Notes under the pieces: model-generated
What the model was told of the DNA's origin: nothing
The model's input: the letters and a program-made list of their open reading frames with translations, nothing else
The model's database searches: none
Translations under genes and position numbers: made by a program
Assembly: GCF_002025665.1 (NCBI RefSeq)
Contig: NZ_CP018786.1
Span: 2,790,001-2,854,000 of the forward strand
Reading direction: 5' to 3'
DNA from: Chryseobacterium indologenes
GTDB lineage: Bacteria; Bacteroidota; Bacteroidia; Flavobacteriales; Weeksellaceae
Length of the DNA: 64,000 nt
Shown here: piece after piece, positions 4,643-60,235 of the stretch
Numbering within the stretch: position 1 is the first letter of the stretch
Layout of the letters: the number at the start of each line of letters is the position of its first letter

Positions 4643-6274
4643 ATGAAAAAATTATCATATACACTCTTATTTGCATCAGGGCTGGTTTTCGGACAGTTCT
4701 TTGAGAAGGGTAAGGTTTTCACCAAACAGGATACATTAAAGGGTTCCAATACCGAATTCAGAAATTTTTGGGATGTCAAAAAATATGATCTTTCTGTAGA
4801 GCCCGATTTTGAGCAGAAAAGCATTAAAGGAAATAATAAAATCAGTTTTGAGATCATCAAAGATATTACCAATCCTGTTTTCCAGATTGACCTTCAACAA
4901 CCAATGAAAGCGGATAAGGTGGAAGGAAACTTTCCTATTGCCAATTATAAGCAGGATGGAGACTTTATTTTCATTACAACAAATAAAAAATTCAAAAAAG
5001 GTGAAAAATATACAATTAACGTTACCTATTCCGGAAAGCCTACCATAGCTAAAAAAGCACCGTGGGATGGCGGATGGGTTTTCACTAAAGATGAAAAAGG
5101 GAATCCATGGATGACTGCTGCTGATGAGGGAATAGGAGCTTCCATATGGCTTCCTACCAAAGATATCTGGAGCGATGAACCTGATAACGGGATCATTATG
5201 AAAATTGTCACTCCCAATGATCTGGTAGGTGTGGGTAATGGCAGACTCACTGATAAAAAAACAACCGGCAGTAAAACTACTTATACCTGGGAGGTCAAAA
5301 ATCCTATCAACGCCTACTCCATTATCCCGAGCATAGGGAAATATGTAAATTTTAAAGATACATTTGAGGGTGAAAAAGGAAAACTGGACCTGGATTACTG
5401 GGTAATTGACTATAATCTGGACAAGGCAAAGAAACAGTTTGAGCAGGTAAAACCTATGTTATCAGCTTTTGAATACTGGTTTGGTCCGTACCCGTTTTAT
5501 GAAGATTCATACAAGCTTGTAGAATCACCTCATCTTGGTATGGAACATCAAAGTAATGTAGCCTATGGGAATAAATATCAGAACGGCTATCTCGGCAGAG
5601 ATCTTTCTGGGACGGGAGTTGGGCTAAACTGGGATTTCATTATTATTCATGAAAGCGGACATGAATGGTTTGCTAACAATATTACCGCAAAAGATCAGGC
5701 TGATATGTGGATCCATGAAAGTTTCACCAATTATTCCGAGACTCTTTTCACGGAAAAATATATGGACAAAAAATCTTCTGAAATTTATGTTCAGGGGATC
5801 AGGAATTTGATAGACAATGACATTCCTATTATTGGCCAGTATGGTGTAAGAAATGAAGGCAGCGGAGATATGTATCCGAAAGGAGCCAACATGCTTCACA
5901 CGATAAGGCAAGTTATCAATAATGATGAAAAATTCAGACAGATTTTAAGAGGTTTGAATAAAGACTTTTATCATCAGACTGTTACCACTCAACAGATAGA
6001 AGATTATATTTCTTCAAAATCAGGAATCGATTTTTCAACGGTTTTTGATCAGTATCTGAGATCCATAAAAATACCAACCCTTGAGTATGCTCAAAATGGG
6101 GATACTTTAAAGTTCCGTTATACGGATGTGGTAAAAAACCTGAAATTACCTATCATCATCAATGGTGATCAAACCATAAATCCAACGGAAGAATGGCAGA
6201 CCGTAAAACTTAAAAAGAGCACTTCGGTTGAGCTAAGCCCGAACTATTATATCAATTATAAGGAAACTAAATAA
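4643..6274 (+). CDS. Exported M1-family metallopeptidase (aminopeptidase-like)
   Basis: This 543-aa zinc peptidase of the M1 (gluzincin) family probably trims N-terminal residues from peptides outside the cytoplasm. The N-terminus MKKLSYTLLFASGLVFGQ is a signal peptide. The beta-rich N-domain is followed by the GMEH substrate-binding motif (299-302) and the zinc site HESGH (336-340), with the third ligand Glu359 exactly in the HExxH-x18-E spacing. Length is short for M1 (no ERAP1-type C-domain), as in many Bacteroidetes members. No type IX sorting tail is visible. It has its own promoter box and terminator and lies next to two other exported peptidases without being in an operon with them. 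Confidence 0.93.
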   Translation: MKKLSYTLLFASGLVFGQFFEKGKVFTKQDTLKGSNTEFRNFWDVKKYDLSVEPDFEQKSIKGNNKISFEIIKDITNPVFQIDLQQPMKADKVEGNFPIANYKQDGDFIFITTNKKFKKGEKYTINVTYSGKPTIAKKAPWDGGWVFTKDEKGNPWMTAADEGIGASIWLPTKDIWSDEPDNGIIMKIVTPNDLVGVGNGRLTDKKTTGSKTTYTWEVKNPINAYSIIPSIGKYVNFKDTFEGEKGKLDLDYWVIDYNLDKAKKQFEQVKPMLSAFEYWFGPYPFYEDSYKLVESPHLGMEHQSNVAYGNKYQNGYLGRDLSGTGVGLNWDFIIIHESGHEWFANNITAKDQADMWIHESFTNYSETLFTEKYMDKKSSEIYVQGIRNLIDNDIPIIGQYGVRNEGSGDMYPKGANMLHTIRQVINNDEKFRQILRGLNKDFYHQTVTTQQIEDYISSKSGIDFSTVFDQYLRSIKIPTLEYAQNGDTLKFRYTDVVKNLKLPIIINGDQTINPTEEWQTVKLKKSTSVELSPNYYINYKETK

Positions 6275-46500: not shown

Positions 46501-46613
46501 CAAAATTGTCCAAAATTATCCGAATTTTTTCCTCTTGTTTTTTTTCAATATTCTACTACAAACATTGTATTATTCTTAATCAAATTATATATTTACGAAA
46601 TTATCATTATCAT

Positions 46614-49520
46614 GTGAAAAATTTATTTACTTTCCTCACATTATCTGCAATTTTATTCTTTCCCTCATTATTTTCTTCACAGATCCCCGGGATGGTGAAC
46701 TATAGCGATGAGGAAGGATTAAACTGCTCCTATACCTATCATCTGAGACAAGATAAAAATGGTTTCATCTGGATAGGCAGCGATAACGGCTTATTCAGAT
46801 TTGACGGAAAAGAATTTAAACAATACGGTAAGAAAGAAGGTTTAAAGAATATTGATATTATATCCTGTGAGCCTTTGCCCAACGGCGAGGTATTCATTCT
46901 TCCCTTCCTGAATGATTTTGCTTATTTAAAAAACGGCCGTGTTATCAATCTGAACATTAATGACTATGTAAAAAATCAGTTTTCAAGCTCTATTCCGAAA
47001 GTTACCCGTAATGGAAACCGACTTTATTTTTATGGAAATTTAAACCCTCAGAATATTTTCATCTATGAAAGCGGAAAAGTTAAAAAGATCTCCATCCCAT
47101 TAGATTACGGGAAAAGATATTTTGCAACGCTCAGGTTTGAGCCGCATACTTACAATCTCTATTTGCATGATTCTCATCAGGGAAATATACTTGTCTACAA
47201 TATCCTCACCGGAAAAAAGCAATATTTGAAGGCAGAAACCGGAAGTATGATCTGTGAGAAAGATGATCTTTTTGTATTCTTAAATAAAAATACAATTGAA
47301 GTGTATCAACTCTCTGCACCCTCAGGCATAAAAAAGATCCTATCTTATGATTGTGGCACACAAGAGAATGTTTTCTACGGACTTATTGATAAAAACAATA
47401 AACTATGGCTGAATATAAGTAATGGAGGCGTTTTATATTTCAACGAATCACTGACTGAAAAAAAGATAAACCTTGGTACTCCCATCAAAATACTGGACCG
47501 TTATGTGATCAATAATGTTCTTGTAGACAAAGATGATAACGTATGGTTCAATTCACGGAATAATGGTGTATTTTTCATATCAAAATCCCTTTTTGCCAAT
47601 CATATCAATTTGCCTGTAAAAAGTAATTCTGAGTATATAAAAGCCATTACAAAAGATAACGGAAATATTCTTCTCGGCTACAATCAATCTGCCGGTGCGC
47701 TTATCAGTAAAAACAATAAAATACAAAATATTATCCTGGATAAAGGTGATAAAGATGAAAACATCTCGGTATATTTAAAAGGCAATATTTCCATTTTCGG
47801 TTTATCAGGTAAAGTTATTGTTCATGATATGGTCAATAATACTTCTAAAAAGATATATTGTTCCTTAAAGAACATTGTCTCTTACACACAGGATTCCTTA
47901 TTTTTCTGTACATCTGGCGGCTTATTGACCTATAGTTTAAAGACTAAAAAAACAACAACCCTTTTTCAGGAGCGGGTATACACCGTTTTTCCCTACGATA
48001 AAGAGAATCTGTTTATCGGCAGCTTCAGTGATCTGTACAAATACAATATCAGAAACCGGAAAAAAACTTTATTTTTAAAGGGATACTATTTTACAGATAT
48101 TAAAAAATTAGATGATTATACTTATTTGGGAGCAACTAACCTCCACGGGATTATTCTTTTTAATACTCAAGGAATTATAAGAAAAATCGGAAAGAATGAT
48201 GGATTAATCAATGACCAGGTAAAAAAAATAGAAGTAGAAAATAAAAATACATTCTGGGCAAGCACCAATTCAGGGATATCCAGAGTTGAACTGACAGCAA
48301 AGAATCAACATATCAATAACTTCACCCAGACAGACGGACTTCCCTCTGATGCAGTGGCAGGTTGTGTGATAAAAAATGACACCATCTTCATTGGAACTTC
48401 TAAAGGACTTGGAATATTTTCCATCAAAAAACTACTGACTCAGGAAAAATTCATTCATAAAAAGGTCGTCATTAATTCAGTATCTATTGAAAATAATGAG
48501 CATTATGACCTGCAAAAAAGCCTGACTGCTTATCCCCACAATACCGTTATTTTCAATCTCAGCTTTCTGGATTATACCTCGTTGGGAAAAATAAGCTATA
48601 AATATAAGCTGGAAGGCCTTAATAACTCATGGCAGATCAATAATTCTTCTAAAGTCATCTTCAACTCTATTCCGCCAGGTAAATACACCTTCCGGGTTTA
48701 CGGTTTAGGATATAACGGAAAACAATCCTACGCCTCTTCCGATCTCGCTTTTTATATAAAACCTCTGTTCTGGCAGACATGGTGGTTCAGGCTGATATTG
48801 GCCATCATCACCATCGGAACTCTATTGATGATTGTCTTTTCTTACCTGCATAAAAAAAGAAATAAGAAAATGGAAAAAATGGAATATGAAAAGAAGATTG
48901 CCGAACTTGAACTTCAGGCCATTAAAGCTCAGATCAACCCTCATTTTATTTACAACTGTCTGAATTCCATCCAATTTTTATTGTATAAAAAAGATTACCG
49001 TGAAACAGAAAACTACCTGGATATTTTCGCCAAGATGATCCGAAAAACACTTTATTATTCAGAAAAAACCTTTATGTCTATTAAAGATGAAGTGGAATAT
49101 CTCACGCTGTATCTTGATATGGAAAAGCTTCGTGTAAAAGATCTTTTTGAGTATAAAATCATCATTTCTGAACAGGTAGATCAAAACTGGAAGATTCCTT
49201 CTTTACTGATACAGCCCTTTGTGGAAAATGCGATAAAGCATGGCATTTCAGGATTAAAAGACAGGAAAGGAAAAATTCTTATCAGCTTTGATTATACGAA
49301 TGTTTCTTTATGTATTACCATTGAAGATAATGGTATAGGAATTTCCAACCAGGAAGCTTTGAAAAAAGACAACTCCTTCGGGGTAAAACTTTCTCATAAA
49401 AGGATTGAGACTTTCAAACAGCTTTTTGATACCAATATTTTTTTAGAAATCAATGCGTTTCCGGAAAGCAACAGACAGGGAACGCAAATAAAACTTTATA
49501 TAAAACCTTATGAGAAATAA
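46614..49520 (+). CDS. Propeller-sensor histidine kinase (Reg_prop/Y_Y_Y, LytS-type kinase domain)
   Basis: This 968-aa protein has a signal peptide (LFTFLTLSAILFFPSLFSSQ), then a large periplasmic beta-propeller region with two-component-propeller motifs such as LRQDKNGFIWIGSDNGLFRFDG and FWASTNSGISRVE. A Y_Y_Y domain (about 690-770) precedes one transmembrane segment (WWFRLILAIITIGTLLMIVF). The cytoplasmic kinase has the LytS-type His in KAQINPHFIYNCLNSIQF, the N box FVENAIKHGI and DNGIGIS. GTG is chosen as start because the in-frame TTG 108 bases upstream would put a long non-signal extension before the signal peptide. The LytTR regulator gene overlaps its end by 11 bases. Such sensors usually detect a polysaccharide or peptide outside the inner membrane. 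Confidence 0.92.
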   Translation: MKNLFTFLTLSAILFFPSLFSSQIPGMVNYSDEEGLNCSYTYHLRQDKNGFIWIGSDNGLFRFDGKEFKQYGKKEGLKNIDIISCEPLPNGEVFILPFLNDFAYLKNGRVINLNINDYVKNQFSSSIPKVTRNGNRLYFYGNLNPQNIFIYESGKVKKISIPLDYGKRYFATLRFEPHTYNLYLHDSHQGNILVYNILTGKKQYLKAETGSMICEKDDLFVFLNKNTIEVYQLSAPSGIKKILSYDCGTQENVFYGLIDKNNKLWLNISNGGVLYFNESLTEKKINLGTPIKILDRYVINNVLVDKDDNVWFNSRNNGVFFISKSLFANHINLPVKSNSEYIKAITKDNGNILLGYNQSAGALISKNNKIQNIILDKGDKDENISVYLKGNISIFGLSGKVIVHDMVNNTSKKIYCSLKNIVSYTQDSLFFCTSGGLLTYSLKTKKTTTLFQERVYTVFPYDKENLFIGSFSDLYKYNIRNRKKTLFLKGYYFTDIKKLDDYTYLGATNLHGIILFNTQGIIRKIGKNDGLINDQVKKIEVENKNTFWASTNSGISRVELTAKNQHINNFTQTDGLPSDAVAGCVIKNDTIFIGTSKGLGIFSIKKLLTQEKFIHKKVVINSVSIENNEHYDLQKSLTAYPHNTVIFNLSFLDYTSLGKISYKYKLEGLNNSWQINNSSKVIFNSIPPGKYTFRVYGLGYNGKQSYASSDLAFYIKPLFWQTWWFRLILAIITIGTLLMIVFSYLHKKRNKKMEKMEYEKKIAELELQAIKAQINPHFIYNCLNSIQFLLYKKDYRETENYLDIFAKMIRKTLYYSEKTFMSIKDEVEYLTLYLDMEKLRVKDLFEYKIIISEQVDQNWKIPSLLIQPFVENAIKHGISGLKDRKGKILISFDYTNVSLCITIEDNGIGISNQEALKKDNSFGVKLSHKRIETFKQLFDTNIFLEINAFPESNRQGTQIKLYIKPYEK

Positions 49521-50241
49521 AATACAGGCATGCATTGTTGATGATGAGCAAGATGGCAGAGATTATATTGCATTACTTATGGAAAATGAATTTCCTGAAA
49601 TCAACATAGAATTCCAGGCTTCCTCCGTGGAAGAAGCTTATATTTACCTTATCAAAAACTCTCCCGACATTCTGTTTCTGGATGTTCAGTTAGGTGATGG
49701 AACCACTTTCGATTTACTCTCAAAGCTGAATGAAGTTCATTCCCAGATCATTTTCATCACAGCTTACGAAAATTTCGCTATTCAGGCGATTAAAAATGGA
49801 GCTACAGATTATCTTTTAAAGCCTATAAAAAAAATGGATTTTATGATTGCTGTCAATAAAGCCCTGGACAATATCAAAAAAATACAGACTCCCAATCATA
49901 CTCTTCTTAAAGATAACAAAATTGTTCTTTCTACCCTTCAGGGATTTAAGTTGGTAGAAATATCCAATATCATCCGCTGTGAAGCAGATTCAAGCTATAC
50001 CCTTTTTTATCTTGCCGATAAATCAAAAATAATGGTATCCAGAACGCTTCATGAGTTTGAACCCATTCTGATGGAACATCATTTTTTCAGGATACATCAT
50101 AAGCATCTTATTAACATTAATCATCTTCAGGAATATATTAAAGGCAGAGGCGGACAGGTAGTAATGAGTGACGGATCCGTTCTGGATGTCTCCTACCGCA
50201 AGAAGAATGACTTCCTTTCCACCATAGGAAAACCCGAATAA
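49510..50241 (+). CDS. LytTR-family response regulator next to the peptide gene
   Basis: This 243-aa regulator has a receiver domain (acid pocket VDDEQDGRDY, phospho-Asp in ILFLDVQLGDG, IIFITAYENFAIQAI, and YLLKPIKK) and a LytTR DNA-binding domain (ISNIIRCEADSSYTLFYLADKSKIMVSRTLHEFEPI ... FFRIHHKHLINI). It pairs with the overlapping kinase gene. Directly downstream lie two CGCACTTA direct repeats with a 21-bp period and then a GG-leader peptide gene, so the peptide operon is the best candidate target. Confidence 0.94.
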   Translation: MRNKIQACIVDDEQDGRDYIALLMENEFPEINIEFQASSVEEAYIYLIKNSPDILFLDVQLGDGTTFDLLSKLNEVHSQIIFITAYENFAIQAIKNGATDYLLKPIKKMDFMIAVNKALDNIKKIQTPNHTLLKDNKIVLSTLQGFKLVEISNIIRCEADSSYTLFYLADKSKIMVSRTLHEFEPILMEHHFFRIHHKHLININHLQEYIKGRGGQVVMSDGSVLDVSYRKKNDFLSTIGKPE

Positions 50242-50349: not shown

Positions 50350-50550
50350 ATGAAAATCACTAGAAAAGTACTCAAGAGAAATCAAATGAGATCCATTGCT
50401 GGAGGAACAGCATTTGTTACCCCAAGCAACCCCGGAACAATCCCTCAACCCCAGCCTCCTATTGCATCTAATCCGCAACAACCTATTGGAGGACTTCCTT
50501 TTATTTATACCATGCCATGGAATGGACTTCCATGGATTGAACCTAAATAA
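50350..50550 (+). CDS. Double-glycine leader peptide with Pro-rich core (bacteriocin/RiPP-like)
   Basis: This 66-aa peptide begins MKITRKVLKRNQMRSIAGG, a short basic leader ending in a GG cleavage site of the kind cut by C39-type ABC exporters. The leader resembles those of the four peptides at 58077-58983 (LKRNQMRSIAGG versus LNKKELRTIKGG). The predicted core of 47 residues is rich in Pro and Gln (IPQPQPPIASNPQQPIGG) and ends FIYTMPWNGLPWIEPK, without Cys, Lys being only the last residue. It lies between the LytTR regulator with its putative site and a metallopeptidase-like lipoprotein. Role as toxin, signal or other exported peptide is open. Confidence 0.75.
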   Translation: MKITRKVLKRNQMRSIAGGTAFVTPSNPGTIPQPQPPIASNPQQPIGGLPFIYTMPWNGLPWIEPK

Positions 50551-56857: not shown

Positions 56858-57796
56858 TCAGGAACGAAATTCCAATGGGGTAAACGTTGTTTTCCTTTTA
56901 AAGAAATTGGAAAAATGGGCAATCTCCTCAAATCCCAGCGCATATGATATTTCTGAAACATTCCATTTCGTTTGTTTTAAGAGTATTTTAGCTTCCTGAA
57001 TAATCCGGTCCGAAATAAATTCTGTGGTTGTCTTTCCGGTGCTTTCTTTTAATCTTTTGTTTAAGTAATTGACATGAACAGCCAATCGGTCTGCATAATC
57101 TTTTGCAGTCTTCAATTGCAGTCTCTGTTCCCATGATTCAATAGGAAACTGTCTTTCCAGCAGCTCTATAAATAAAGAAACCACTCGCATGGATGCATCA
57201 TTTGAAGCCGATATTTTGGATGCAGGCTGTAATTTCTGTCCATAATGAATCAACTCCAGAACATAGTTTCTGATCAGATCATATTTAAATACATAATCTG
57301 AATCTATTTCTTTTTTAATTTTTTTAAAGAGGCTTTCAATCTCTTCTGCAAATTCATTATCAATTTCAAAGACAGGCACTCCTCCCGGCTGAAAGATAGG
57401 AAGATCTTCAAGATTGTAGTAAGATTTATCCTTAATGAAGAAGTCTTCCGTAAATACACAGAAACTTCCGGACTGATCCGGATCTTCAGGAACCCAGTGA
57501 TACGGAACTTTAGGAGTTGCAAACAATAAGGCATTCTGTTGTATTGAAATTACTTTGTCTGCATATTCTGCTCTATTTCTTCCTTTTATAAAGCTGATTT
57601 TATAGTATTTCCTTCTGTTATAAGGCATTTCGGAAGTGGCCTTTGCTCTTTCTATCGTTTGGGCAATATCAAAAACATTAAAGTGACCGATGTCTTTATG
57701 CAATCCTTTTGGAAAAATACTTTCGAGATCTTTTCCCAGCTTGGCTGCCATCTCTTTATAAAAATCTTCCAGTGAAGTGTGTGCTATTTTTTCCAT
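56858..57796 (-). CDS. AraC-family transcriptional regulator
   Basis: This 312-aa soluble regulator has an N-terminal cupin-like sensor domain (about 1-190) and two helix-turn-helix motifs at the C-terminus: KDYADRLAVHVNYLNKRLKE and NVSEISYALGFEEIAHFSNFFKRKTTFTP. It lies upstream of the SDR gene on the same strand. A perfect palindrome (57796-57812) touches its start codon and lies between the promoter boxes and the gene, so negative autoregulation is likely. Confidence 0.92.
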   Translation of the reverse strand: MEKIAHTSLEDFYKEMAAKLGKDLESIFPKGLHKDIGHFNVFDIAQTIERAKATSEMPYNRRKYYKISFIKGRNRAEYADKVISIQQNALLFATPKVPYHWVPEDPDQSGSFCVFTEDFFIKDKSYYNLEDLPIFQPGGVPVFEIDNEFAEEIESLFKKIKKEIDSDYVFKYDLIRNYVLELIHYGQKLQPASKISASNDASMRVVSLFIELLERQFPIESWEQRLQLKTAKDYADRLAVHVNYLNKRLKESTGKTTTEFISDRIIQEAKILLKQTKWNVSEISYALGFEEIAHFSNFFKRKTTFTPLEFRS

Positions 57797-58076: not shown

Positions 58077-58265
58077 ATGAGAAATCAAATCAGTCAAATC
58101 GGAAAAAAATTAAACAAAAAAGAATTAAGAACTATTAAAGGAGGTCTTATCAACTGCATGGAACCAGTTCTTTGCCCTACCCCTTGTGAGCCTTCTTCTG
58201 ATCCCTATGGATGCACAATCATTTCTCCAAAATGTGCACAGAAAGAGTGCAGACCACAATTATAA
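58077..58265 (+). CDS. Cys-rich double-glycine leader peptide 1
   Basis: This 62-aa peptide has the leader MRNQISQIGKKLNKKELRTI ending KGG, recognisable as the Chryseobacterium bacteriocin-like leader. The 39-residue core has six Cys: CMEPVLCPTPC near its start and CTIISPKCAQKECRPQL at its end, the latter with spacing C-x6-C-x4-C. It is first of four tandem genes 30-37 bases apart. A near-consensus box TACTTTAG (58040-58047) lies 30 bases upstream. The Cys may form disulphides or thioether bridges; no modifying enzyme is in the window. Confidence 0.82.
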   Translation: MRNQISQIGKKLNKKELRTIKGGLINCMEPVLCPTPCEPSSDPYGCTIISPKCAQKECRPQL

Positions 58266-58295
58266 TTAAAGGGCCATTTTATAAACAAAAAAACT

Positions 58296-58493
58296 ATGAA
58301 AAAGATTGAATTAAGTAAAGGTAAAAAGCTTGAAAAAAAACAATTAAAAATGATTCAGGGAGGTATGCTGGATTGCATGGAGCCAAGACCATGCACAGAA
58401 TTCCCATGTGAAACCTATCCTCCTGACGATGTCAGAAACTGCACCAAGATTTCTGTTGGCTGTGCCCAAAAAATCTGCAGACCACAACCCTAA
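58296..58493 (+). CDS. Cys-rich double-glycine leader peptide 2
   Basis: This 65-aa peptide has leader KGKKLEKKQLKMIQGG and a 42-residue core with the same six-Cys plan as peptide 1: CMEPRPCTEFPC, then CTKISVGCAQKICRPQP (C-x6-C-x4-C). Identity to peptide 1 in the core is high at the Cys modules and low in the middle (TYPPDDVRN here), so it is a tandem duplicate that has diverged. It starts 30 bases after peptide 1. Confidence 0.82.
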   Translation: MKKIELSKGKKLEKKQLKMIQGGMLDCMEPRPCTEFPCETYPPDDVRNCTKISVGCAQKICRPQP

Positions 58494-58529
58494 AGATAGC
58501 ACTCATTACAAAAACAAAAATTAAACAGT

Positions 58530-58688
58530 ATGAAAAATCAAGATTTAACTCACGGAAAAAAATTGAACAAAAGACAATTAAGAGTAATAACCGGAGGAAA
58601 AGAAATGTGTCTTCTTCCAGACCTTACCTGTAAGAAATTTTCTTTTGCCTGCGCAGAATTACAGTGCCAGCCAGGTATTGAATTGTAA
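58530..58688 (+). CDS. Cys-rich double-glycine leader peptide 3 (short)
   Basis: This 52-aa peptide reads MKNQDLTHGKKLNKRQLRVI then TGG, and a 29-residue core with four Cys: one near the start (MCLLP) and CKKFSFACAELQCQPGIEL with the C-x6-C-x4-C spacing. It lacks the CMEPxxCxxxPC block of peptides 1 and 2. It lies 36 bases after peptide 2 and 37 before peptide 4, all in the same direction. Confidence 0.78.
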   Translation: MKNQDLTHGKKLNKRQLRVITGGKEMCLLPDLTCKKFSFACAELQCQPGIEL

Positions 58689-58725
58689 TAAGTCAAAAAA
58701 AACTAAACCATAAAAACTTTAACGA

Positions 58726-58983
58726 ATGAAAAATCAATATTTAAATAATGGTAAAAAACTGAATAAAAAACAGTTGAAAACCATTAAAGGAGGTGTCATG
58801 ATATGTAGTACAGGTGGAGCAAACGGCAGAGTATGCGCACAAATCCATCCATCATGTTATGAACCAGAGTGTAGAAGTGGCCAGGCAGAATTAAGATGCA
58901 CAGATATAACTAATAATTGTGTTGTCTTCTCTCTATCCTGTATAGAGCCAAAATGCCGGTTTGATATAGGTATCCCACTTTAA
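58726..58983 (+). CDS. Cys-rich double-glycine leader peptide 4 (duplicated core)
   Basis: This 85-aa peptide has leader NGKKLNKKQLKTIKGG and a core of about 62 residues with nine Cys. The C-x6-C-x4-C module occurs twice, CAQIHPSCYEPECRS and CVVFSLSCIEPKCRF, separated by GQAELRCTDITNN, so the core seems to have arisen by internal duplication. It is the last gene of the cluster and is followed by a weak hairpin (58995-59018). Confidence 0.8.
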   Translation: MKNQYLNNGKKLNKKQLKTIKGGVMICSTGGANGRVCAQIHPSCYEPECRSGQAELRCTDITNNCVVFSLSCIEPKCRFDIGIPL

Positions 58984-58994
58984 AAATAAAAATG

Positions 58995-59025
58995 CTGCTC
59001 TCTAACTTCAGGGAGCAGTAATTTT
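58995..59025 (+). terminator. Weak terminator after the peptide cluster
   Basis: CTGCTCTC / GGGAGCAG stem (one G-T pair) with an 8-base loop, followed by TAATTTTT. Confidence 0.55.
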
Positions 59026-59143: not shown

Positions 59144-60235
59144 TTATACGTTGAATCTAAAGTGCATGATGTCACCATCCTGTACGATATATTCTTTACC
59201 TTCTACAGAAAGTTTTCCGGCTTCTTTTATCTTTACTTCAGAACCGTAAGTAATGTAATCGTTATACTTGATTACTTCTGCACGGATAAATCCTTTTTCA
59301 AAGTCTGTATGGATTACTCCTGCAGCTTGTGGAGCTGTCCAGCCCTGTCCGATAGTCCAAGCTCTTACTTCTTTTACCCCAGCTGTAAAATACGTCTGAA
59401 GTTTCAAAAGATCATATGCTTTTCTGATCAAACGGTTAACTCCCGGCTCTGTAAGACCAAGTTCATCAAGGAAAATTTCTCTTTCTTCGAACGTTTCAAG
59501 TTCATTAATATCCGCTTCGATCTGTGCTGCCAGTACTACTACTTCAGCACCTTCGCCTTTAGCCATTTCTTCAATCTTAGCAATCCACTCATTTCCGTTT
59601 TTGATAGAGTTTTCATCTACATTACAAACGTAAAGGACCGGTTTATTTGTCAACAATTGAACTTCTCCGATGATTGATTTTGTAAAGTCATCAGTCGCAA
59701 ATTCTCTTGCATTCTTACCGTCTTCAAGAAATTTCTGTAAATTCTGAAGGGTTTCGTAAGTAAGAATATCTTCTTTCTTCCCTGATTTGATGAATTTTTT
59801 AGCTTTTTCAACTGCTTTTCCTACGGTTTCAAGGTCTTTCAGCTGAAGTTCTATATCAATAATTTCTTTATCTCTTAATGGATCTACTGAACCTTCTACG
59901 TGAACGATATTTCCATTATCAAAACATCTTAAAACATGAATAATCGCTTCACACTCGCGGATATTAGCCAAGAACTGGTTCCCCAATCCTTCTCCTTTGC
60001 TGGCACCTTTTACAAGACCCGCAATATCAACAATTTCAACTACAGCGGGTAAAACTCTCTCAGGTTTTACGATTTTCTCCAGTTCAAACAATCTCTGATC
60101 TGGTACAGAAACCGTCCCAAGGTTCGGTTCAATAGTACAGAAAGGATAGTTTGCTGATTGAGCTTTTGCATTGCTCAGACAGTTAAAAAGAGTTGATTTA
60201 CCTACATTCGGTAAGCCTACGATTCCACATTTCAT
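59144..60235 (-). CDS. ychF: Redox-regulated ATPase YchF (Obg-related)
   Basis: This 363-aa P-loop protein of the Obg/HflX superfamily hydrolyses ATP rather than GTP and binds ribosomes; in E. coli it is a negative factor in the oxidative stress response. GLPNVGKST (7-15) is the Walker A motif, VEIVDIAGLVKGASKGEGLG holds switch II, and the C-terminal TGS-like domain ends EYIVQDGDIMHFRFNV. The family's altered G4 motif (VLYVCNVDE in place of NKxD) is visible. Length is exactly as usual. Confidence 0.96.
   Translation of the reverse strand: MKCGIVGLPNVGKSTLFNCLSNAKAQSANYPFCTIEPNLGTVSVPDQRLFELEKIVKPERVLPAVVEIVDIAGLVKGASKGEGLGNQFLANIRECEAIIHVLRCFDNGNIVHVEGSVDPLRDKEIIDIELQLKDLETVGKAVEKAKKFIKSGKKEDILTYETLQNLQKFLEDGKNAREFATDDFTKSIIGEVQLLTNKPVLYVCNVDENSIKNGNEWIAKIEEMAKGEGAEVVVLAAQIEADINELETFEEREIFLDELGLTEPGVNRLIRKAYDLLKLQTYFTAGVKEVRAWTIGQGWTAPQAAGVIHTDFEKGFIRAEVIKYNDYITYGSEVKIKEAGKLSVEGKEYIVQDGDIMHFRFNV

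What the first reader, a model, noticed from the sequence alone, without database searches (positions are those of the whole stretch)
58077..58983. Four tandem Cys-rich GG-leader peptides sharing a C-x6-C-x4-C module
Four short genes, 30-37 bases apart, encode peptides whose leaders share GKKLxKKxLxxIxGG while the cores differ. Every core ends in, or contains, a module of exactly C-x6-C-x4-C (CTIISPKCAQKEC, CTKISVGCAQKIC, CKKFSFACAELQC, CAQIHPSCYEPEC, CVVFSLSCIEPKC). Conserved leader plus diversified core is the signature of an exported peptide family, such as bacteriocins or RiPPs. GG leaders are normally cut by C39 peptidase-ABC exporters. No exporter, modification enzyme or immunity gene is adjacent, so the system would be split across the genome or use a novel route.
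Basis: partly seen in the sequence, partly recalled or inferred. Interest (0 to 1): 0.85.

Follow-up and report, generated by a model that had tools for sequence, protein, structure and literature searches.

The report
Scattered disulfide-rich peptides, shared export machine
Four small bacterial genes encode what are very probably secreted, cysteine-bridged mini-proteins, made with an export-and-oxidation machine encoded two million bases away that the same bacterium seems to share among dozens of similar scattered peptides.

Summary
In detail: four tandem ORFs (58077-58983, +) encode 52-85 aa peptides with a GKKLxK[KR]xLxxIxGG leader and five C-x6-C-x4-C modules. The genome is Chryseobacterium. 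No exporter is nearby, but the "split system" now has a likely partner. Of five C39-ABC exporters in the genome, four have their own precursor beside them. The fifth stands in an operon without one: HlyD, C39-ABC, and a VKOR-thioredoxin disulfide oxidase fused to a Cys-less C39-like domain.

In a second genus, of another family, the window's peptide family occurs in 12 of 249 genomes, all with this oxidase, and 13 of 15 peptide genes lie within 5 kb of it (11 of the 15 with a slightly shorter module, C-x6-C-x3-C). In Chryseobacterium, 103 of 103 carriers have the oxidase; the 9 of 148 genomes without it have no hit for either leader type. Core cysteine number is even in 241 of 241 peptides.

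Best reading: disulfide-bonded secreted mini-proteins, handled in trans by one leader-guided oxidase/exporter. Orthologous cores are conserved (dN/dS 0.16), not diversifying; nothing points to thioether or radical-SAM chemistry. Biological role unknown. New variant of a known kind.

The parts
58077..58265 (+). Precursor 1 (62 aa): GG leader 1-23, 6-Cys core (C-x5-C-x3-C-x8-C-x6-C-x4-C)
   Evidence: profile match 7.2e-29
58296..58493 (+). Precursor 2 (65 aa): GG leader 1-23, 6-Cys core
58530..58688 (+). Precursor 3 (52 aa): GG leader 1-23, 4-Cys core (C-x6-C-x6-C-x4-C)
   Evidence: AF2 blocks of residues 11-50 pLDDT 83-88, pTM 0.41
58726..58983 (+). Precursor 4 (85 aa): GG leader 1-23, 8-Cys core = two 4-Cys domains in tandem
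58993..59020 (+). Terminator-like hairpin (11 pairs, T-rich tail) after the array
   Evidence: 2 found in the region, 0.7 expected in shuffles; a consensus match only
56858..57796 (-). Divergent AraC-type regulator gene, left flank of the slot (neighbour; regulation of the array not shown)
   Evidence: Pfam HTH_18/HTH_AraC; homologue in 64 of 73 loci
59144..60235 (-). YchF-type GTPase gene, right flank of the slot (neighbour, not part of the system)
   Evidence: Pfam YchF-GTPase_C; homologue in 71 of 73 loci

Best explanation
The four genes are a detached substrate array of a peptide-secretion system whose machinery is encoded 2.27 Mb away. Each precursor is a leader that docks on C39-type domains plus a core that folds into one or two small disulfide-bonded domains (4, 6 or 8 Cys, all paired). 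Steps inferred: (1) the leader is recognised in the cytoplasm by the C39 peptidase of the ABC exporter (G000:C1:573,280-575,475), which cuts after GG and pushes the core out through the HlyD adaptor (571,825-573,147) and an outer-membrane channel encoded elsewhere; (2) the neighbouring VKOR-thioredoxin protein (575,665-577,179) oxidises the emerging core on the periplasmic side, and its N-terminal C39-like domain, which has no cysteine, probably holds precursor leaders near the exporter; (3) the released product is a cystine-stabilised mini-protein. The same machinery would serve the other Cys-rich GG peptides scattered over the genome (35 places match the Chryseobacterium leader model at E<=1e-3). 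Shown: gene content, leader and Cys conservation, co-occurrence, gene neighbourhood in relatives. Inferred: processing, disulfides, secretion in trans. Not known: what the products do.
For: Five C39-ABC genes in the genome. Four have partners: an NHLP system, grasp-with-spasm, and two with a GG precursor beside them; the fifth operon is HlyD/C39-ABC/VKOR-thioredoxin with no precursor found in the 18 kb fetched. Second genus (g5, another family): the window-type profile hits 12 of 249 genomes, all 12 with the VKOR fusion (79 of 249 overall; hypergeometric 5.7e-7), and 13 of 15 peptide genes lie within 5 kb of a VKOR gene, 10 within 1.1 kb. In 7 of the 10 loci fetched a C39-ABC gene (62-65% identical) lies there too, often with an array of Cys-rich GG peptides between; cores such as LKDCIDPNTNQCKYYSLSCASPC are homologous to the Chryseobacterium cores. 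Own genus: VKOR fusion in 139 of 148 genomes, window-type peptides in 103 of the same 148, all within the 139 (recount 99; Fisher 1.2e-5). Of 26 genomes examined further, the 9 without VKOR and G053 with only a distant homologue have no leader_Chryseo hit at E<=1e-3, the 16 with it have 1-20; in 15 of 16 one lies within 2.6 kb of VKOR, in 11 of 16 between VKOR and C39-ABC. On a YchF tree the VKOR state changes 7 times (5 on supported branches), and the peptides follow in 5 of 5 independent pairs. A peptide pair beside VKOR in five relatives lies 1.43 Mb from it in this genome (67-85% identity), as expected if substrate genes disperse. Even core Cys number in 241 of 241. All six redox Cys invariant in 60 of 60 VKOR fusions; no Cys in the N-terminal part in 57 of 60; that part is related to C39 domains by profile comparison (hhalign probability 94.8).
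Against: No expression, mass or activity data. In Chryseobacterium itself no exporter or VKOR homologue lies beside the 73 window-type loci (0 of 73); the link rests on the second genus, on co-occurrence and on leader similarity. Of the 15 peptides in that genus 11 have C-x6-C-x3-C, not x4; of the 4 with exactly C-x6-C-x4-C two are beside VKOR and two are orphans; four of the 15 lack an exact GG (KGQ, KGQ, KGS, NGA) and one has a Cys in its leader. Window leaders fall below the leader_Chryseo cut-off. The VKOR genes next to those peptides are only 26-31% identical to the own operon's copy. The grasp-with-spasm exporter is 83% identical to the VKOR-linked one and could also carry the peptides. 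The tree test has only 5 supported independent pairs (sign test p 0.0625). Even Cys counts are inherited, not independent events.
Confidence: 0.8

Rival explanations
1. Classical GG-leader bacteriocins (microcin or class II type) that kill competitors, exported in trans.
For: GG leader with weak matches to bacteriocin leader models; C39-ABC/HlyD exporter available in the genome; multi-copy repertoire with a variable number of genes in one slot.
Against: No gene recognisable as immunity recurs beside the arrays, though one unassigned 398-aa lipoprotein-like ORF recurs in 21 of 73 loci (not in the window) and ORFs under 100 aa were not examined for this; orthologous cores under purifying selection; array DNA has no match in plasmids and peptide 1 none in phages. 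Real bacteriocins can lack these marks, so this is not excluded; it is compatible with the best explanation of how they are made.
Confidence: 0.35
2. Signals or other secreted effectors (density sensing, surface interaction, protease or metal binding) rather than weapons.
For: Purifying selection on cores; wide conservation in the genus, at one slot in most of the loci read; divergent AraC-type gene as frequent neighbour.
Against: No receptor or target identified; 35 or more different products in one genome are many for signals.
Confidence: 0.35
3. Modified RiPPs (radical-SAM, lanthipeptide or graspetide) with enzymes elsewhere in the genome.
For: Weak similarity to TIGR04149 (rSAM-modified RiPP), 20.4 bits against a cut-off of 25; the genome does have a grasp-with-spasm system.
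Against: Below cut-off; no such enzyme recognised nearby; the grasp-with-spasm system has its own precursor, with one Cys in the core; even Cys number and VKOR linkage point to disulfides. Not searched genome-wide.
Confidence: 0.08
4. Export by the grasp-with-spasm exporter (83% identical) rather than by the VKOR-linked one.
For: Close similarity of the two exporters.
Against: A genome with a 90% identical exporter in a grasp-with-spasm locus but no VKOR (G143) has no leader_Chryseo and no window-type hit: one genome only.
Confidence: 0.1

Closest known systems
NCBIfam NF047798 leader_Chryseo 'bacteriocin-like protein'
   Same: Short GG leader rich in Lys, Cys-rich cores, same genus, scattered over the genome
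   Different: Window leaders score 17.4, none, 11.7 and 17.7 bits, under the 23.5 cut-off; they have the longer GKKLNKKQL form and a core family with a fixed C-x6-C-x4-C module
TIGR04149 GG_sam_targ_CFB and PF14406 Bacteroid_pep (Bacteroidota GG peptides)
   Same: GG leader of Bacteroidota
   Different: Below the TIGR04149 cut-off; no radical SAM enzyme recognised beside the genes; PF14406 matched 32 of 85 relatives at E<=1, best 3.9e-5, and none of the four window peptides
Gram-positive disulfide bacteriocins with a thiol oxidase in the operon (pediocin PedC, sublancin BdbA/BdbB; recalled, no call)
   Same: GG leader, C39-ABC export, dedicated disulfide oxidase
   Different: Here one VKOR-thioredoxin fusion with a C39-like domain, Gram-negative cell, and many substrates scattered in trans
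Class II microcins exported through C39-ABC/HlyD/TolC (recalled, no call)
   Same: GG leader and type-I-like export route
   Different: No recognisable immunity gene beside the array; a disulfide oxidase goes with the exporter; dozens of different products per genome

Membership tests
NF047798 leader_Chryseo | Leader model score over the curated cut-off (23.5 bits) | tested here: not met
   17.4, none, 11.7, 17.7 bits for peptides 1-4
NF047798 leader_Chryseo | Company of the VKOR fusion (a feature found here, not part of the model) | tested here: met
   leader_Chryseo hit within 2.6 kb of VKOR in 15 of 16 genomes; window-type peptides: 103 of 103 genus carriers have VKOR, elsewhere in the genome
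TIGR04149 rSAM-modified RiPP | Score over cut-off (25 bits) | tested here: not met
   20.4, 14.4, none, 16.9 bits
TIGR04149 rSAM-modified RiPP | Radical SAM/SPASM maturase in the locus | tested here: not met
   ORFs of 100 aa or more in 73 loci clustered; the recurrent ones annotated with Pfam are none of that kind; not searched genome-wide
GG-leader peptide exported by a C39 peptidase-ABC transporter | GG-type leader | tested here: met
GG-leader peptide exported by a C39 peptidase-ABC transporter | C39-ABC exporter in the genome, linked to the family in relatives | tested here: met
   linkage in relatives
GG-leader peptide exported by a C39 peptidase-ABC transporter | Cleavage after GG and secretion | not testable with these tools
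   needs mass spectrometry
Bacteriocin (class II / microcin) | Immunity gene beside the structural gene | tested here: inconclusive
   none recognised among recurrent neighbours of 100 aa or more; one unassigned 398-aa ORF in 21 of 73 loci; shorter ORFs not examined for this
Bacteriocin (class II / microcin) | Antibacterial activity | not testable with these tools
   needs an activity assay
Disulfide-bonded secreted mini-protein | Even Cys number with fixed spacing | tested here: met
   241 of 241 even, 239 of 241 with C-x6-C-x4-C
Disulfide-bonded secreted mini-protein | Known fold | tested here: inconclusive
   model of peptide 3 pLDDT 79, pTM 0.41; of peptide 1 pLDDT 59; Foldseek found no PDB match for peptide 3; sequence search best E 0.31
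Lanthipeptide / graspetide | Lan synthetase or ATP-grasp enzyme in the locus | tested here: not met
   none among annotated window neighbours or recurrent neighbours; the genome's ATP-grasp locus found here has its own precursor

The most novel reading that the evidence does not exclude
Chryseobacterium runs a 'venom-gland-like' secretion economy: one leader-guided oxidase/exporter matures dozens of unlinked, cystine-stabilised mini-proteins whose genes have moved away from the machinery operon and are kept by purifying selection, for a purpose other than classical self-immune bacteriocin killing. The dead C39 domain fused to VKOR would be a new device: a leader reader that couples disulfide formation to export.
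Probability: 0.35. Interest if true: 0.8.

Novelty: new variant of a known kind. Interest (0 to 1): 0.62.

Why it matters
It turns a set of orphan 'hypothetical' peptides into likely substrates of a named, testable machine, and would explain why no exporter sits beside them. It would give a Gram-negative bacterium a large repertoire of genetically encoded disulfide mini-proteins and a general disulfide-making exporter with a leader-recognition domain, useful for finding other scattered substrates (search by leader plus even-Cys core) and possibly for making cystine-rich peptides. Gene-cluster mining that looks only near the exporter would miss the peptides in this genome.

Tried and rejected
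Arms-race diversification: tested by dN/dS and rejected for orthologues. The groups were chosen by core motifs and so lean towards conserved cores; one search uses reciprocal best hits and no core motif; in it peptide 4 gave no usable pair and peptide 2 one. Known protein family: Pfam, NCBIfam and PDB gave only weak, mostly leader-type matches. Fold: the model of peptide 1 is poor (pLDDT 59) and was not searched; that of peptide 3 gave no PDB match. Mobile origin: no match in plasmids (array DNA) or phages (peptide 1 only). sigma-70-type promoter scan: 3 found, 6.3 expected; Bacteroidota promoters are not covered. Papers: the searches listed none whose title or abstract start ties VKOR to GG peptides in Bacteroidota; most subscription journals are not held. 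Leader-profile ranking of precursors separated only partly: two VKOR-linked peptides scored as low as non-VKOR ones.

Results against the reading, also told: exporters 90-91% identical exist without a close VKOR in two of 26 genomes (G143, G053); G143's stands in a grasp-with-spasm locus, G053's was not assigned (a 25% VKOR homologue lies about 4 kb from it, yet no leader hit). In G072 no leader_Chryseo hit lies near VKOR; in G018 and G102 the close exporter is not near VKOR. Two of 15 peptides of the second genus are not near VKOR (G206 C2, G511). Own-genome Cys parity: 26 of 27 peptides that my regex caught (the window's four among them) are even, one has 5. In the 16 loci, 33 regex hits: 4, 6 or 10 Cys in 30, one with 7, one with 0, one with 2 (the last beside grasp-with-spasm). 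A lipoprotein-like 398-aa ORF without a Pfam family lies beside the array in 21 of 73 loci, not in the window; it has no relative among the ORFs of 150 aa or more in the VKOR and exporter loci compared; its role is open.

Mended on checking: the tree test first counted G070's leader state, which I had assumed; without it the result is the same. In one search I had typed only the first 60 residues of the L060 precursor; the full 211-aa protein also has no core Cys.

Full report
WHAT IS THERE. The window lies in a 5.31-Mb one-contig genome of Chryseobacterium: the best named relative of peptide 1 is C. cucumeris GSE06, 100% identical. Four ORFs on the + strand at 58077-58265, 58296-58493, 58530-58688 and 58726-58983, with gaps of 30, 36 and 37 bases, encode peptides of 62, 65, 52 and 85 aa. 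Each has a 23-residue leader ending in GG, with invariant G9 K10 K11 L12 K14 L17 I20 G22 G23, and four alignable core cysteines C27 C46 C53 C58 (numbering of peptide 1). Peptide 4 has two 4-Cys domains in tandem. A terminator-like hairpin follows at 58993-59020.

THE SLOT. One scan of genome contigs by the leader stretch GKKL[NE]K[KR][QE]L gave 73 loci, nearly all named Chryseobacterium. A YchF GTPase gene is present in 71 of 73, the AraC-type gene in 64, a ferritin-like gene in 64 and an SDR gene in 63; no HlyD, C39-ABC or VKOR homologue was found among ORFs of 100 aa or more in any of the 73 (about 4 kb on each side where the contig allows). Other recurrent neighbours are GHL10, aminotransferase and phospholipase-D-type genes and, in 21 of 73, a 398-aa lipoprotein-like ORF without a Pfam family. 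The array is thus an old resident of one chromosomal slot in most of these genomes, with a variable number of genes. In the genus, 103 of 148 sampled genomes have a profile match at E<=1e-8.

THE CORES. Among 241 distinct GG-leader peptides (those a leader regex finds in the 73 loci, plus the window), 239 carry C-x6-C-x4-C (3.7 expected from shuffled cores), and the core Cys number is 4 in 140, 6 in 82 and 8 in 19: always even. The loci were chosen by leader, not by core; but the peptides are related, so these are not 241 independent events. The two without the module have ordinary leader_Chryseo-type leaders. Orthologue pairs by reciprocal best hit: leader dN/dS 0.145, core 0.164 over 324 pairs, core pN>pS in 1 of 320. 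This is constraint, not diversification; the variety lies between paralogues and in gain and loss of genes.

THE REST OF THE GENOME. The NCBIfam model leader_Chryseo (18 positions) matches 55 places at E<=1, 35 of them at E<=1e-3; at E<=1e-3 none of 14 control genomes rings, at E<=1 two do. The window peptides match it below its cut-off. So the window array is one island in a scattered repertoire. Of 27 own-genome peptides caught by my regex, the window's four included, 26 have an even Cys number.

THE MACHINERY. The genome has five C39-ABC genes. L056 is an NHLP system (TIGR03796 over cut-off, with an NHLP-like precursor just under the leader model's cut-off); L058 is grasp-with-spasm (TIGR04192 over cut-off, its SPASM partner under its own cut-off) with a GG precursor; L059 and L060 have GG precursors beside them. 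L057 (G000:C1) is an operon of HlyD (571,825-573,147), C39-ABC (573,280-575,475) and a 504-aa protein with Pfam VKOR and Thioredoxin_4 domains (575,665-577,179), with no precursor gene found in the 18 kb. The precursors of L058, L059 and L060 have 1, 1 and 0 core Cys; nine peptides beside VKOR genes in L199, L200, L203, L213 and L214 have 4-8, all even.

THE VKOR FUSION. In 60 sequences all six redox cysteines (175, 189, CRVC, CGFC) are invariant, and 57 of 60 have no Cys in the first 120 alignment columns. The N-terminal domain compares with the exporters' C39 domains at hhalign probability 94.8, E 5.4e-8 for a database of one, 97 columns (37 and 14 sequences). It looks like a C39 domain that lost its catalytic cysteine and may still bind leaders: inference. 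The membrane topology assumed (N terminus inside, thioredoxin outside) is recalled from bacterial VKORs, not tested.

LINK 1, CO-OCCURRENCE IN THE GENUS. The fusion is in 139 of 148 genomes at E<=1e-20; all 103 window-type carriers are among them, and none of the nine genomes without it is a carrier (recount; Fisher 1.2e-5, phylogeny ignored). I then examined 26 of the 148: the nine, G053 with only a distant homologue, and 16 carriers of VKOR that lack window-type peptides. leader_Chryseo hits at E<=1e-3 are 0 in those ten and 1-20 in the 16. On a YchF DNA tree of 30 genomes the no-close-VKOR state needs 7 changes, at least 5 on supported branches, and the leaders go the same way in 5 of 5 independent pairs; the sign test cannot pass 0.0625 with five.

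LINK 2, NEIGHBOURHOOD. In 15 of those 16 genomes a leader_Chryseo hit lies within 2.6 kb of VKOR; a close C39-ABC gene lies within 10 kb of VKOR in 14 of 16, and in 11 of 16 a hit lies between the two (coordinates, worked out; loci read; G072 has no hit nearby). A pair of peptides beside VKOR in five of these genomes has its homologues (74-85% and 67-73% identity) in this genome at 2,002.4-2,002.6 kb, 1.43 Mb from the VKOR operon. This is what dispersal of substrate genes away from a fixed machinery would look like; the direction of the move was not tested.

LINK 3, WINDOW-TYPE CORES BESIDE VKOR. In a sample of 148 genomes of the order, the window-type profile (A2) hits six of the own genus and two of another family. 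In the genus of the latter (g5, unnamed; Flavobacterium-like by my guess), 12 of 249 genomes have hits, all 12 with the VKOR fusion (79 of 249 overall; p 5.7e-7), and 13 of 15 peptide genes lie within 5 kb of a VKOR gene, 10 within 1.1 kb. Of the 10 loci fetched, seven also hold C39-ABC; L281 has 15 GG-peptide ORFs between VKOR and C39-ABC. Examples of the core: LKDCIDPNTNQCKYYSLSCASPC (L281), LKDCIDPMTGQCRYYSLACANPC (L284), RIRCKIGGVCTQYGIQCAETDC (L286). Eleven of the 15 end in C-x6-C-x3-C, four in C-x6-C-x4-C; of these four, two are beside VKOR (L286, L290) and two are the orphans (G206 C2, G511); four of the 15 lack an exact GG. The profile alignment itself supports the homology (47.8 and 37.6 bits for two of them).

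HOW IT WORKS, AND HOW SURE. Best reading (0.8): leader-guided export by the C39-ABC/HlyD route with disulfide formation by the VKOR fusion, in trans. What the products do is open; antagonism and signalling or other effector roles get about equal weight. No peptide product, cleavage, disulfide or activity has been shown.

COMPARED WITH WHAT IS KNOWN. GG peptides with C39 exporters are well known; [quoted passage not shown] Dedicated thiol oxidases of Gram-positive bacteriocins (PedC, BdbA/B) are recalled. The VKOR family survey PMC4555120 (term search only) has no occurrence of peptidase, C39 or Bacteroid-. My searches (listings seen) showed no report of this coupling or of this core family. 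Hence: new variant of a known kind.

Noticed in passing
window 50350-50550 (+): Another GG-leader-like peptide, MKITRKVLKRNQMRSIAGG..., Pro-rich and without Cys, downstream of a sensor kinase (46506-49520, Y_Y_Y/His_kinase) and a LytTR response regulator (49510-50241); a possible peptide-signal arrangement.
   Followed up: partly
G000:C1:2855046-2855099 (about 1 kb beyond the window's right end): A leader_Chryseo peptide (36.3 bits) lies just outside the window, 6 kb from the array.
   Followed up: no
L199 8241-10061 (G000:C1 about 810-812 kb): A second VKOR-thioredoxin paralogue in the own genome (27-29% identical) with a 6-Cys GG peptide 72 bases upstream and no homologue of the exporter or HlyD in the 18 kb fetched.
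   Followed up: partly
L281 2648-7113: An operon of the second genus with 15 Cys-rich GG-peptide ORFs between VKOR and C39-ABC, two of them (5424-5582, 5622-5780) identical in protein sequence.
   Followed up: no
L202 2895-8195: In G191 the VKOR/GG-peptide cluster lies beside two ORFs (1005 and 388 aa) that look like lanthipeptide-type enzymes by eye and a further GG peptide; not annotated with a tool.
   Followed up: no
L092 1768-1944, L095 1691-1867, L104 1810-1992 and similar: In several relatives further genes of the same core family (C-x6-C-x4-C) lie about 2-3 kb upstream of the main array.
   Followed up: no
L091 4962-6158 (-): A 398-aa lipoprotein-like ORF with no Pfam family lies between the array and the YchF gene; homologues in 21 of 73 loci, none in the window.
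   Followed up: partly
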